Shown here: one piece after another, positions 6,479 through 50,039 of the stretch
How positions within the stretch are numbered: the stretch's first letter is position 1
Layout: every line of letters starts with the position of its first letter
DNA from: Canibacter zhuwentaonis
GTDB lineage: Bacteria > Actinomycetota > Actinomycetes > Actinomycetales > Microbacteriaceae
DNA length: 64,000 nucleotides
NCBI RefSeq assembly: GCF_018531145.1
Contig: NZ_JAHDSZ010000002.1
Coordinates: 1-64,000, forward strand
Reading direction: 5' to 3'
Made by a program: the position numbers and the translations under genes
The notes under the pieces: generated by a model
The model's database searches: none
What the model was told of the DNA's origin: nothing
The model's input: only the letters and a program-made list of their open reading frames with translations

Positions 6479-6933
6479 CTAGCGCGGCGCAAATCACGAT
6501 CCGTCAGGCAACTGTCGCAGATTGCGAGGCGATATTCGCGCTTGAACAGGAACTTTTTGGCACGGACGCGTGGAGTCAAAATCTTGTGCGCGACGAGCTA
6601 ACAGCCCCGCACCGCACATACTGGGTGCTCGAGACGGTCGCACATGAAATAGTGGGCTATGCTGGGTTGCTCGCGCTCGGCAGTGAAGCGGATCTGCAAA
6701 CAATCGCGGTTGCAGCACAGTATCAGGGCTGTGGCTTGGGGCAGCTGTTGCTAGATAAAATAGTAGCAAGCGCCTTGGCGGCGGGAGCGAAACAGCTATT
6801 TTTAGAGGTGCGCGCTGATAATCCGCCGGCGATTAAACTGTACCAGAAGAACGGCTTTGAGCAGATCGCGATTCGGCCGAAATATTATCAGCCAGCGGGC
6901 GTGGATGCGTTGATTATGCGAGCGTTTTTATAG
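6475..6933 (+). CDS. rimI: Ribosomal-protein alanine N-acetyltransferase RimI (GNAT family)
   Basis: This 152-residue GNAT acetyltransferase has the acetyl-CoA binding core LQTIAVAAQYQGCGLGQLLL and the C-terminal EVRADNPPAIKLYQKNGFE segment typical of RimI. The family acetylates the N-terminus of ribosomal protein bS18 and, in some actinobacteria, other N-termini. It overlaps tsaB by 4 bases and precedes tsaD. This tsaE-tsaB-rimI-tsaD order is widespread in Actinomycetota and supports the assignment. The substrate specificity is inferred from family and context only. Confidence 0.92.
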   Translation: MTSAAQITIRQATVADCEAIFALEQELFGTDAWSQNLVRDELTAPHRTYWVLETVAHEIVGYAGLLALGSEADLQTIAVAAQYQGCGLGQLLLDKIVASALAAGAKQLFLEVRADNPPAIKLYQKNGFEQIAIRPKYYQPAGVDALIMRAFL

Positions 6934-7043
6934 TGCGCACCGCGCGGAATGTGATCAGAAGTGCAAGATACAGCGCGTCTCGCGCAACAGAGGTTTGAAA
7001 GACAGCGTGCGCCGCGCAACAACAGGAGCAGAGGTTGGAAAGA

Positions 7044-8108
7044 ATGAACAGGCAAGAACCACTGGTGCTGGGCATTGAAACCAGCTGTGACGAGACGGGC
7101 GTGGGGATTGTGCGCGGCAGAAAACTGCTCGCCAACGTGATTGCCTCCTCGATGGCAGATCACGCTAAGTTTGGCGGGGTTGTGCCCGAGATTGCCGCCC
7201 GCGCGCACCTGGAGAGCTTGGAATCCGTGATTGCACAGGCCCTACGCGCCGCGCAAGTTGAGCTGCGCGAGATAGACGCGATCGCGGTGACTGCCGGGCC
7301 GGGGCTCGCGGGTGCGCTCATGGTTGGAGTGGCGGCCGCAAAAGCGCTCGCGCTGGCGCTGGGTGTGCCGTTGTACGGGGTGAATCACCTGGTCGCTCAC
7401 GTGGGCGCTGAGCTGCTCTCGAGCGCTGAGCCGCTGCACACGCCAACCGTGGCGCTGCTGGTTTCCGGCGGACACACTTCGCTGTTGCTGGTGCGTGATT
7501 TGGTTGACGATGTTGTGATGTTGGGCGAGACAATCGACGATGCGGCCGGCGAGGCTTTCGACAAGGTGGCGCGGGTGCTCGAGTTGCCGTACCCTGGCGG
7601 CCCTGAAATTGACAGAATCGCGGCGGATGGCGATCCGCTTGCTATTAGATTCCCGCGGGGGCTTGTGAAACCTGCGGATCTTGTGAAACACCGTTACGAT
7701 TTTTCTTTCTCCGGCTTAAAAACCTCGGTTGCGCGCTGGGTTGAGCGCGAGCTAGCGCAGGGCAGGACCGTTAATCGAGCAGACGTGGCTGCCAGCTTTC
7801 AGGAGGCGGTGGCGGATGTGCTGCTCCACAAAACGATTGATGCCTGCCTCACACGCGAGGTGTCGCACTTGATTCTGGGTGGCGGGGTGGTTGCCAACTC
7901 GCAAATCCGCTGGCGCGCAGAAAAACTCTGCGCCGCTCACAATATTACTTTGCGAGTGCCGCCGCTGTCACTGTGCACAGACAACGGCGCGATGATTGCC
8001 TCGCTCGGTGCGCAGCTGATTATTGCGGGCAAAGATCCGTCACTTTTGAACTTTAGCGCCCATTCAACCCTGCCGGTCACCAGTGTGATGGTCGGCGAGT
8101 CTAGATAA
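7044..8108 (+). CDS. tsaD: tRNA threonylcarbamoyltransferase catalytic subunit TsaD
   Basis: TsaD transfers the threonylcarbamoyl group to A37 of ANN-decoding tRNAs. Key features are [16 protein letters not shown] at the N-terminus, the metal-binding NHLVAH histidines, [10 protein letters not shown], and the C-terminal [12 protein letters not shown] and CTDNGAMIA motifs. I chose ATG at 7044. A TTG at 7035 (three residues longer, with AGGAG six bases upstream) is equally possible. A 110-base spacer separates it from rimI. It converges with the downstream lipoprotein gene, overlapping it by 8 bases at the stops. Length is 354 residues, as usual. Confidence 0.96.
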
Positions 8109-8679
8109 TATTGCCGTCGGCCGAGTCGATCAGTACCCGGGTGGTTGCCTGCGAATTCTGCTGTTGCACGGTCACTTTCCAGATTGGGTTCGCGCCGTGA
8201 CCCGACTCTAGCTCAATTTCAACGAGAAGTCCCGGTGTGTGCGCGAGCGCGGCATCAAGCGCCTGAGCGGCGGTTGTGCGGGCGTTTTGGGTGCGGATCG
8301 CATCATCGCGATCGGCTAATTTCGGGGTGTCTTTTGAAATAATGCGGCTGCCGTCGCCGCTCACGGTGAACTCGTGCTTGTAATCTTTACTAACCACTTC
8401 GATCTCCCACTCGGCATCTGAGGAGTCGTAGTCGAGCTTGGCGATTTTGCCGCCGCCTGATGCCTGCAACGCGAGCGAAATAGCGCTTTTTGCCGTTTCA
8501 GCGGTGCCACCCAGCGGGGTTTGTGACGGGGTTTGCGGTTGCGGCGCAGGGGTGCTTTGACCCGCAGGCGGATTGTTGTGAGAGCTGATCGGACTGGCGC
8601 TGTTATTAGCTGTGCATGCTGTGAGAGTTACTAGAGCAACTCCGGTAACAAGTCCGGTTGAGAAAAGTCTTTTTAGCAT
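8101..8679 (-). CDS. Lipoprotein with PepSY-like domains
   Basis: From the ATG at 8679 the protein has 192 residues. It starts MLKRLF, then a hydrophobic stretch ending in the lipobox LTAC, so it is a predicted lipid-anchored exported protein. A Pro/Gln/Ser/Thr-rich linker follows. Two segments resemble PepSY units: [11 protein letters not shown]...[10 protein letters not shown] and [14 protein letters not shown]...NPIWKVTVQ. PepSY domains are thought to bind or inhibit secreted proteases, but the role here is unknown. The start is supported by TATCTT six bases upstream (leaderless). A longer frame begins at 8736 but would put extra residues before the signal peptide. Confidence 0.75.
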
Positions 8680-8685
8680 AAAAGC

Positions 8686-8691
8686 AAGATA
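8686..8691 (-). promoter_or_regulatory. -10 element of leaderless lipoprotein promoter
   Basis: On the minus strand TATCTT is followed by six bases and then the ATG at 8679. No Shine-Dalgarno is present. This supports choosing 8679 as the start of the PepSY-like lipoprotein. Confidence 0.5.
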
Positions 8692-8878
8692 TAGCATGTA
8701 TCTGTGTGTATAATAGGAAAATATCGCCGCTTGCATTAAAGTCCGCGTGATTGTTTGCTATAGAATGTTTGGAATTCACATTTCGAGCTGGTGCGGTAGG
8801 ATATTCTGATGGATACTAGGTACGGGAAGGCTCGGTTTTCACTCGCTTAAAGCGACTGACTGTTAGAAATAGGGTTTT

Positions 8879-48454: not shown

Positions 48455-48940
48455 TTAGTCTCTGAAGGTTTCTACGCCAACAATTTTTACGCTGATGTCG
48501 TTGCCGTTGGGTGCGGTGTAGCTCGCGGTTTCTCCCGCTTTAAGCCCGAGCACAGCTTTGCCGAGCGGGCTTTCTGGGCTGTACACGTCTAGTTCTGTGC
48601 CCTCTGCTATTTCGCGGCTGCCGAGCAGGAACTTTTCTTCCTCACCGAACAGTTCAACGGTGATGACCGTGCCAATTTCAACAACCCCGCTTGAAGTTGG
48701 TGCAGCGCTAACAACCGCGTTTTGTAGGAGTTCTTCGAGATTGCGAATCCGCGCCTCCATTTTACCCTGCTCGTCTTTTGCGGCGTGGTATCCGCCGTTT
48801 TCTTTGAGGTCGCCTTCTTCTCGCGCCGCTTCGATACGGGCTGCTATTTCACGCCGTCCCTCGCCTGAGAGCTGATCAAGCTCAGCTTTGAGACGATCGT
48901 AAGCGCTTTGCGTTAGCCATGTTTTGTTTGTTTCAGCCAC
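48455..48940 (-). CDS. greA: Transcription elongation factor GreA
   Basis: GreA rescues backtracked RNA polymerase by stimulating transcript cleavage. The 161-residue protein has the N-terminal coiled coil with the acidic tip EAAREEGDLKENGGYHAAKDEQ (Asp and Glu needed for cleavage) and the C-terminal FKBP-like domain ending LGLKAGETASYTAPNGN. It starts at GTG with AAGGAG seven bases upstream. In related genomes its upstream neighbour is DUF4307; here two small peptide genes intervene. Confidence 0.96.
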   Translation of the reverse strand: MAETNKTWLTQSAYDRLKAELDQLSGEGRREIAARIEAAREEGDLKENGGYHAAKDEQGKMEARIRNLEELLQNAVVSAAPTSSGVVEIGTVITVELFGEEEKFLLGSREIAEGTELDVYSPESPLGKAVLGLKAGETASYTAPNGNDISVKIVGVETFRD

Positions 48941-49126
48941 GCTTGCTCCTTAAATATTTGTGGATAAAAAAAATAGCAGTGTTGATAACATCAACACCCC
49001 TTTAACTCATCCATTATACAGCTAGTTTCTTGTTTTCTGGCTAATCAGTGTGATTGAGGAAGCAAAAAGCGGCGGCGAGCCCCACCAAAACGAAGCCCGC
49101 CGCCGAACTTGCGCGATCTATAAGAG

Positions 49127-49309
49127 CTACTCAGCAAGCTTATCTGCCTTAGCTGACCTGGAAGATTGCAGTTTTGCGTATATTAAACCCCCCAGCGCTA
49201 CGAAAAAACCTGTAATATGCAGAGATGCATCGCAGGTAACCCCCAAAAAATTATACAAAAAGATTCCAGCTGCTAGAATGCAGCCGCCAATTATACTGGT
49301 GATTTTCAT
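49127..49309 (-). CDS. Small two-helix membrane peptide (60 residues), second gene of a peptide cassette
   Basis: The product begins MKITSIIGGCILAAG. It has two hydrophobic segments (about 4-22 and 31-50, joined by a short turn containing VTCDAS) and a polar C-terminus rich in Lys, Arg and Ser. The ATG at 49309 has GGAG six bases upstream, inside the end of the preceding 35-residue gene. A GTG at 49327 is a longer alternative. I do not recognise a family. A small two-helix protein next to a tiny hydrophobic peptide would fit an immunity, antitoxin-like or export partner, but nothing in the sequence proves this. Confidence 0.65.
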   Translation of the reverse strand: MKITSIIGGCILAAGIFLYNFLGVTCDASLHITGFFVALGGLIYAKLQSSRSAKADKLAE

Positions 49310-49310
49310 T

Positions 49311-49418
49311 TTATGCTCCGAATCCACAAGCAGAAATTACCGCTCCGACAACGAGCAATTCTAGCAGAGCTTCTCTAAGACCCGAACTGGCCGCTGTAAA
49401 TATTTTTATTGTTTTCAT
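49311..49418 (-). CDS. 35-residue hydrophobic peptide, first gene of a peptide cassette
   Basis: The product starts MKTIKIFTAASSGLREALLE and ends VVGAVISACGFGA: a short basic head, then an amphipathic/hydrophobic stretch and a single Cys near the C-terminus. The ATG has AAGGAG seven bases upstream, a better ribosome site than most genes here. A promoter, palindrome and inverted repeat lie upstream. The stop codon is one base from the next ATG, so the pair is coupled. It may be a secreted or membrane-active peptide such as a signal, toxin or bacteriocin. This is inference; no family is recognised. Confidence 0.62.
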   Translation of the reverse strand: MKTIKIFTAASSGLREALLELLVVGAVISACGFGA

Positions 49419-49442
49419 TATGTGTCTCCTTGTGTGTCTCGT

Positions 49443-49459
49443 AACTAGCTGAGCTAGTT
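49443..49459 (-). promoter_or_regulatory. 17-bp palindrome in the leader of the peptide cassette
   Basis: AACTAGCT-G-AGCTAGTT is a perfect palindrome with one central base. It lies between the predicted transcription start (about 49490) and the Shine-Dalgarno (49426-49431), so it could be an operator or an RNA hairpin. Confidence 0.55.
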
Positions 49460-49496
49460 CTTCTGTTTCGTGATTGCCGGCAGTGCGACAATCGCG

Positions 49497-49526
49497 AGGA
49501 TAAGTTCCCACCCTTCTAGGTGTCAA
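49497..49526 (-). promoter_or_regulatory. Promoter of the peptide cassette
   Basis: On the minus strand TTGACA (perfect -35, 49526-49521), 18 bases, then TATCCT (49502-49497). It points at the 35-residue peptide gene with a leader of about 72 bases. Confidence 0.6.
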
Positions 49527-49532
49527 CTAAGA

Positions 49533-49568
49533 ATCAAGATACTTGGCGATTTTGTGAGTTATCTTGAT
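49533..49568. promoter_or_regulatory. 9-bp inverted repeat upstream of the cassette promoter
   Basis: ATCAAGATA (49533-49541) and TATCTTGAT (49560-49568) are perfect reverse complements, 18 bases apart, with the near edge 7 bases upstream of the -35. The position suits a dimeric activator. It could instead be a hairpin after the DUF4307 gene, but no T-run follows on the minus strand. Confidence 0.5.
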
Positions 49569-49583
49569 GGTTTTATGCCCCGG

Positions 49584-50039
49584 CTACGGTACTTCCCAGC
49601 AGTCGGTTGCGGTTACGGTGTTGGCGGTATTGAGGGTGCGCAATTCTGTTGTGATCCGCTGATGCTGTTTTGAGCTTGCGGGCAGCTCTATTATTTTGTA
49701 CCCGAGCGGCGCATAAGAAGTGCTTAGCGCCTGAATTTCACAGCGCAGTTTTGTCTGCGGGCGTGCGGTTGTGACATCGAAGGTTATTTTGGCGGTGTGC
49801 TTGTCGATAACAGAGTGGCTGATATCAGCAACTGAGATATTGCCAAAACTGTTTCTGAAAACCATTGCGTAGGTGAACCAGCCGAGCGAGACAACGAGCA
49901 TCGCGCCGAGCACCCAGGCGAGCGCGCGATCGCGTTTACGAGAGGCGCGCGCGCCGTAGCGATCCGCCAAATGGGGGGCGACAGTTGTGCACGCGGGCGG
50001 CTGATCTGCGCCCTCTGCTGCTTGATCGCTTAATAGCAC
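49584..50039 (-). CDS. DUF4307 domain membrane protein
   Basis: This 151-residue protein has DRYGARASRKRDRALAWVLG followed by a single membrane helix (about 40-60) and an extracytoplasmic beta-rich domain (ITFDVTTARPQTKLRCEIQAL) with two cysteines. This is the actinobacterial DUF4307 pattern, usually found beside greA. The function is unknown. The N-terminal 30 residues before DRYG are polar and cytoplasmic. It starts at GTG. The peptide cassette lies directly downstream on the same strand. Confidence 0.82.
   Translation of the reverse strand: MLLSDQAAEGADQPPACTTVAPHLADRYGARASRKRDRALAWVLGAMLVVSLGWFTYAMVFRNSFGNISVADISHSVIDKHTAKITFDVTTARPQTKLRCEIQALSTSYAPLGYKIIELPASSKQHQRITTELRTLNTANTVTATDCWEVP

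What the first reader, a model, noticed from the sequence alone, without database searches (positions are those of the whole stretch)
49127..49570. Two-peptide cassette inserted between greA and DUF4307
Seen: two tiny genes (35 and 60 residues) each with a good Shine-Dalgarno, one base apart, behind TTGACA-N18-TATCCT, with a perfect palindrome in the leader and an inverted repeat upstream. The first product is a hydrophobic/amphipathic peptide with one Cys near its C-terminus; the second has two membrane helices. Known: greA and DUF4307 are usually direct neighbours in actinobacteria, so the cassette looks inserted. Inference: a peptide signal, toxin or bacteriocin with a membrane partner, or a type I-like toxin module.
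Basis: partly seen in the sequence, partly recalled or inferred. Interest (0 to 1): 0.75.

Follow-up and report, generated by a model that had tools for sequence, protein, structure and literature searches.

The report
Bacteriocin remnant with putative immunity gene
Two tiny genes between greA and DUF4307 look like what is left of a bacteriocin operon: the first keeps only the tail of a secreted toxin-like protein that is otherwise intact elsewhere in the same genome and in many Gram-positive bacteria, and the second is probably the retained protective membrane protein.

Summary
On the minus strand, between DUF4307 and greA, lie a 35-codon and a 60-codon ORF, each with a Shine-Dalgarno, one base apart, behind TTGACA-N18-TATCCT and ending at a strong terminator. 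Three relatives in the genus have greA and DUF4307 directly adjacent.
The 35-aa product is not an orphan. Its last 24-27 residues match the C-terminal end of an uncharacterised secreted family (phrog_25631). The same genome encodes a full-length 185-aa member on another contig, and others occur across Micrococcales and on small Bacillus and Staphylococcus plasmids (0 of 10,000 shuffles score as well, even without the own paralogue; substitutions between the two tails are synonymous-biased). Nearly every actinobacterial member is followed directly by a small two-helix membrane protein, as here.
Best reading: a bacteriocin-like operon whose precursor gene lost its middle, keeping a few signal-peptide-like residues and the tail, while the putative immunity gene stayed translatable. 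Two other actinobacteria show precursor decay beside an open partner. P0002 has no detectable sequence relatives, so "immunity" rests on position and topology. That the family is antibacterial is inference. A functional mini-peptide is not excluded.

The parts
49311..49418 (-). ORF1, 35 aa MKTIKIFTAASSGLREALLELLVVGAVISACGFGA; residues ~9-35 homologous to the C-terminus of phrog_25631-type secreted precursors
49127..49309 (-). ORF2, 60 aa small membrane protein; putative immunity protein by position and topology only (no sequence relatives)
49497..49526 (-). promoter-like TTGACA-N18-TATCCT
49533..49568 (.). inverted repeat ATCAAGATA-N18-TATCTTGAT just upstream of the -35 (possible regulator site; untested)
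49443..49459 (.). palindrome AACTAGCT-N-AGCTAGTT in the leader
49070..49105 (-). strong intrinsic terminator (16 pairs, then CTTTTTGCTT) that closes the cassette
49587..50039 (-). upstream neighbour: DUF4307 protein (PF14155, E 7.5e-20)
48455..48940 (-). downstream neighbour: greA (PF03449/PF01272)

Best explanation
The cassette is a horizontally acquired, internally deleted bacteriocin-like operon. In its relatives the first gene makes a Sec-secreted precursor of about 170-210 aa (signal peptide, pro-region, and a core that starts with Cys, carries a cationic AKILKIK..GG helix and ends in a hydrophobic helical segment plus a C-terminal Cys). The second gene makes a small two-helix membrane protein that presumably protects the producer. 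Here the precursor gene has lost everything between its first ~8-11 codons (MKTIKIFTAAS, resembling the start of a signal peptide) and its last ~24-27 codons. It can no longer make a secreted toxin. The short frame is still translated from its own Shine-Dalgarno and couples translation to ORF2, whose SD lies inside ORF1's last codons. The cell thus keeps expressing a membrane protein that guards against related bacteriocins. Shown: homology of the tail, gene order, insertion at this site, an intact paralogue in the genome, and two cases of precursor decay beside an open partner elsewhere. Inferred: that the family kills bacteria, that ORF2 is immunity, that a deletion rather than de novo assembly made ORF1, and the translational coupling.
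For: Tail homology: ORF1 residues 9-34 are 54% identical to the end of a 185-aa secreted protein on contig C20. A family-tail HMM scores ORF1 at 17.7 bits without the own paralogue; the best of 10,000 shuffles scores 14.0. The two tails are 65% identical in nucleotides with pS 0.61 and pN 0.25. Family: the C20 protein hits phrog_25631 at E 2.9e-20; relatives occur in Micrococcales, on Bacillus/Staphylococcus/Macrococcus plasmids down to 2.3-3.3 kb, and in Exiguobacterium, S. gallolyticus, Paenibacillus and Clavibacter. Gene order: a small membrane-protein ORF starts close after the precursor stop (mostly within about 50 nt, about 110 at most) in nearly all actinobacterial copies. Decay precedents: Actinomycetaceae zg-1166 has a precursor full of stops and an open 56-aa partner; G848 has lost the precursor's N-terminus and 40 internal codons, ending just before the same tail helix, beside an open partner. 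No other short form was found in 396 order genomes or 213 genomes of the related family, as expected of a one-off deletion. Published parallel: E. coli orphan immunity plasmids lack the toxin gene or carry a heavily truncated one (PMC12546727).
Against: ORF2 does not match the partner-protein profile (4772 of 5000 block shuffles score as well) and has no relative among 85k species. No genome with the undeleted version at this locus was available. ORF1 is a clean ORF with a good SD, which fits a functional peptide equally well. No experiment known to me in the held literature shows that the family is antibacterial.
Confidence: 0.58

Rival explanations
1. A functional miniature: ORF1 is a leaderless membrane-active peptide (one hydrophobic helix plus C-terminal Cys) that evolved from the precursor's last segment and works as a small bacteriocin, with ORF2 as its immunity protein.
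For: Clean ORF with SD, promoter and terminator; hydrophobic segment 17-33; tail conserved with synonymous bias.
Against: Lacks the Cys-start and cationic AKILKIK core that are the invariant parts of the family; net charge only about +1; no second example in about 600 genomes. The synonymous bias may predate the shortening.
Confidence: 0.2
2. ORF1 is only a translated leader or regulator for ORF2: its sequence no longer matters and the frame is kept for translational coupling, and ORF2 has its own unrelated membrane function.
For: One-base spacing, with ORF2's SD inside ORF1; ORF2 unrelated in sequence to the known partners.
Against: Would make the tail homology and the matching gene order accidental leftovers; no known function for ORF2.
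Confidence: 0.12
3. Type I-like toxin module: ORF1 is a single-helix membrane toxin held down by an antisense RNA.
For: Size, hydrophobicity, palindrome in the leader.
Against: No Rfam match; the only antisense promoter-like site is weak and within chance; homology is to a secreted precursor, not to type I toxins.
Confidence: 0.04
4. Peptide pheromone (AgrD-like) with a membrane processing partner.
For: Amphipathic N-terminus and a Cys near the C-terminus.
Against: ORF2 has no AgrB or peptidase family match; no kinase or regulator next to the cassette.
Confidence: 0.03

Closest known systems
phrog_25631 family (unknown function), including the full-length paralogue at G000:C20:71594-72151
   Same: C-terminal segment (R/K)xALLELFxxGAVxxAC; followed directly by a small membrane-protein gene
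   Different: Window ORF1 lacks the signal peptide, pro-region, first conserved Cys and AKILKIK..GG core; ORF2 is unrelated in sequence to the paralogue's partner
Decayed relatives: Actinomycetaceae zg-1166 (L091) and G848 (L127)
   Same: Precursor gene broken, small membrane partner still open
   Different: There the break is by stops/frameshift or by 5' loss plus a 40-codon deletion; here a clean short ORF with its own start remains
CmmAMP-I, 14-kDa secreted antimicrobial of Clavibacter michiganensis (from memory; Liu et al. 2013, not held)
   Same: Family members in Clavibacter have a calculated mature mass of 14.56 kDa and are Sec-type
Orphan bacteriocin immunity loci of E. coli plasmids (PMC12546727)
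   Same: Immunity gene kept beside an absent or heavily truncated toxin gene
   Different: Colicin/microcin families, plasmid-borne, cognate immunity recognised by sequence
SdpC/SDP cannibalism toxin of Bacillus (from memory)
   Same: Sec-secreted pro-protein, hydrophobic mature part, membrane immunity protein
   Different: No SdpC-type model matched; Cys placement differs; partner far smaller than SdpI

Membership tests
phrog_25631 precursor family | C-terminal hydrophobic segment ALLEfF.lG.V..aC | tested here: met
   HMM 17.7-21.3 bits, 0/10,000 shuffles; genome scan E 7.5e-9 (the searched model includes ORF1 itself)
phrog_25631 precursor family | N-terminal Sec signal peptide and pro-region with the IPDxV motif | tested here: not met
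   35 aa only; at most the first ~11 residues resemble the start of a signal peptide
phrog_25631 precursor family | Core beginning with Cys and AK(I/V).K(I/V)K...GG (columns P65, C94, K110, K113, G122, G123 invariant) | tested here: not met
   absent from ORF1
phrog_25631 precursor family | Small membrane protein gene directly downstream | tested here: met
   ORF2 starts 1 base after ORF1; the same order in nearly all actinobacterial members
Partner (putative immunity) proteins of that family | Sequence similarity to the partner-protein profile | tested here: not met
   P0002 -0.9 bits; 4772/5000 block shuffles as good
Bacteriocin | Antibacterial activity of the product and self-protection by the partner | not testable with these tools
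   needs experiment; inferred from architecture and from small plasmids carrying the gene
Type I toxin-antitoxin | Antisense RNA overlapping the toxin gene | tested here: inconclusive
   no Rfam hit; only chance-level promoter-like site
AgrD/AgrB peptide signalling | AgrB-type membrane protease as partner | tested here: not met
   no Pfam/NCBIfam match for P0002
CmmAMP-I | Sequence identity of Clavibacter family members with CmmAMP-I | not testable with these tools
   paper and sequence not held

The most novel reading that the evidence does not exclude
ORF1 is a working one-helix miniature of a large bacteriocin precursor: by internal deletion a 185-aa secreted protein became a 35-aa leaderless peptide that still acts (as bacteriocin, decoy or sensor ligand) together with its membrane partner.
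Probability: 0.2. Interest if true: 0.65.

Novelty: new variant of a known kind. Interest (0 to 1): 0.45.

Why it matters
It ties an apparently orphan peptide to a widespread, unannotated ('hypothetical protein') family of secreted, often plasmid-borne, probably antibacterial proteins with a small membrane partner, spanning Actinomycetota and Bacillota. It gives three independent cases (window, zg-1166, G848) in which the precursor decays while the partner stays open, the pattern expected if the partner is immunity. It makes simple tests possible: express a family member and ask whether the partner protects.

Tried and rejected
No Pfam, NCBIfam or PHROG match for ORF1 or ORF2 worth reporting; weak NCBIfam hits to JUQZ_fam_ocin are signal-peptide matches only. 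The match of ORF1 in G088 lies inside a long RNA-polymerase-like ORF and is chance. Corynaridin was considered and dropped: it is a linaridin. P0002 searches of 300 family genomes, viral contigs and 85k species genomes gave nothing above background. P0002 against the partner profile: negative. P0003 and the pBS32 member against phage records: no match although a PHROG exists. An AlphaFold model of a full-length member (L088, pLDDT 72.5, pTM 0.69, all helical) matched nothing in PDB or BFVD. Repeats at the insert borders (11/12 direct repeat 49309/49571) are about as frequent as chance and were not used.

Full report
What is there. On the minus strand of the window, DUF4307 (49584-50039) and greA (48455-48940), both confirmed by Pfam, are separated by 643 bp. 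In this gap lie TTGACA-N18-TATCCT (49526-49497), a leader with a perfect 8+1+8 palindrome (49443-49459), ORF1 (49418-49311, 35 aa), one base, ORF2 (49309-49127, 60 aa) and a strong terminator (49105-49070). A pair of small ORFs with SDs and this spacing was not seen in 3000 shuffles of the region, and the insert has unusually low GC (45.7% against 55.0%). The promoter match alone is at chance level (1.3 expected).

Whether it is inserted. The genome (1.41 Mb, 28 contigs) belongs to a genus with four other sequenced species, in the family that contains Clavibacter: contig G382:C19, kin 'same family', has the length of the C. tessellarius contig of L092 and matches it. I take this as Microbacteriaceae. 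In three of the four relatives greA and DUF4307 are direct neighbours with about 110-170 bp between them; the fourth contig ends there. Neither ORF is found in those relatives.

What ORF1 is. A search of the own genome found a second match for ORF1's tail (54% identity over residues 9-34): the last residues of a 185-aa protein on contig C20 with a Sec-type signal peptide. That protein belongs to phrog_25631 (E 2.9e-20), a family without assigned function in PHROGs and without a Pfam or NCBIfam model. Members occur in other Microbacteriaceae and Micrococcales, in Actinomycetaceae (family assignment of G773/G721/G848 inferred from the zg-1166 relative), and in Bacillota, often on small plasmids, for example 3.3 kb in S. 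pseudintermedius and 2.3 kb in S. agnetis, and on the 84-kb plasmid of B. subtilis NCIB 3610. The alignment shows an invariant Cys before a hydrophobic stretch, AK(I/V).K(I/V)K...GG, and a last segment (R/K).ALLE(F/L)F..G.V..C. ORF1 contains only this last segment. An HMM of the family tails gives ORF1 up to 21.3 bits, and 17.7 bits with the own paralogue left out; no shuffle of 10,000 reaches that. Between ORF1 and the C20 tail (27 codons) pS is 0.61 and pN 0.25, so the two shared a long history under selection, possibly before ORF1 was shortened.

What ORF2 is. In nearly all actinobacterial members a 50-110 aa protein with two hydrophobic helices is encoded directly after the precursor stop (starts from overlap to about 50 nt, once about 110 nt); S. 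gallolyticus has one too, and P. apiarius one further downstream. ORF2 stands in this place, with one strong and one marginal hydrophobic helix. Its sequence does not match the partner profile, and nothing similar exists in 300 family genomes, viral contigs or 85k species genomes. Immunity proteins of bacteriocins are often too divergent to align (general knowledge); between G773 and G721 the partner evolves much faster than the precursor core (dN/dS about 0.53 against 0.09). The immunity role therefore rests on position and topology.

How it came about. In Actinomycetaceae zg-1166 the same locus (kinase, regulator, precursor, partner) has a precursor broken by stops and frameshifts, while the partner ORF is open. 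In G848 the precursor has lost its N-terminus and 40 internal codons, with the right break just before the same tail helix, while the partner is open. ORF1 fits the same path: MKTIKIFTAAS reads like the first residues of a signal peptide and is joined to the tail. No other short form was found in 396 genomes of the order or 213 of the related family. E. coli orphan-immunity plasmids also carry absent or heavily truncated toxin genes (PMC12546727). I therefore favour 'deleted precursor, retained immunity gene' (0.58). The chief rival is a functional mini-peptide (0.2).

What is not shown. No activity data exist here. That the family is antibacterial is inferred from its build, its partner and its home on tiny plasmids. 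From memory, the Clavibacter antimicrobial protein CmmAMP-I (14 kDa, Sec-secreted) may be a member: a Clavibacter member has a calculated mature mass of 14.56 kDa. I could not obtain its sequence, and only 3 of 18 Clavibacter species genomes carry the gene. An AlphaFold model of a full-length member is all helical and resembles nothing solved.

Noticed in passing
window 48978-48998 (-), greA leader; also L025, L026, L028: Between the greA -10 box and its start codon a terminator-like hairpin followed by a U run is present here and, with different sequence, in three genus relatives: possible attenuation of greA, reminiscent (from memory) of the E. coli greA leader RNA.
   Followed up: partly
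G000:C20, L076 about 6840-7056 (+), 7041-8204 (+), 8122-8856 (+): A small secreted-peptide ORF ending DVLCRIFPYFPMCKKK precedes a membrane histidine kinase and a LuxR-type regulator, convergent with the full-length bacteriocin-like operon. zg-1166 has the same set with NVLCKLLLDLPTCKK but a 1-nt frameshift in the peptide: candidate peptide quorum-sensing control.
   Followed up: partly
L076 9844-10173 (-): A fragment of a phage terminase large subunit (PF20441, E 2.7e-13) lies just upstream of the full-length precursor gene: prophage remnant.
   Followed up: no
L003 2052-2073 (-): The full-length precursor has its SD (AAGGAG) 18 nt before the first ATG; the codon at normal distance is ATA followed by AAA AAA TCA, so translation may start at ATA or the start may be mutated.
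   Followed up: no
H62, H63: S. capitis plasmids NZ_CP098817.1, NZ_CP098821.1: Only the first 94 of 212 residues of a family member match, suggesting another truncated copy.
   Followed up: no
L127 (G848), upstream of the decayed precursor: The decayed copy starts just after what looks like a tRNA gene (sequence; not run through ARAGORN), as in integrated elements.
   Followed up: no
L031 2406-2741 (+): Next to a full-length member, on the other strand, is a second small secreted cationic protein (MRIRRSVLTAIVAGSLISG...) that could be another antimicrobial.
   Followed up: no
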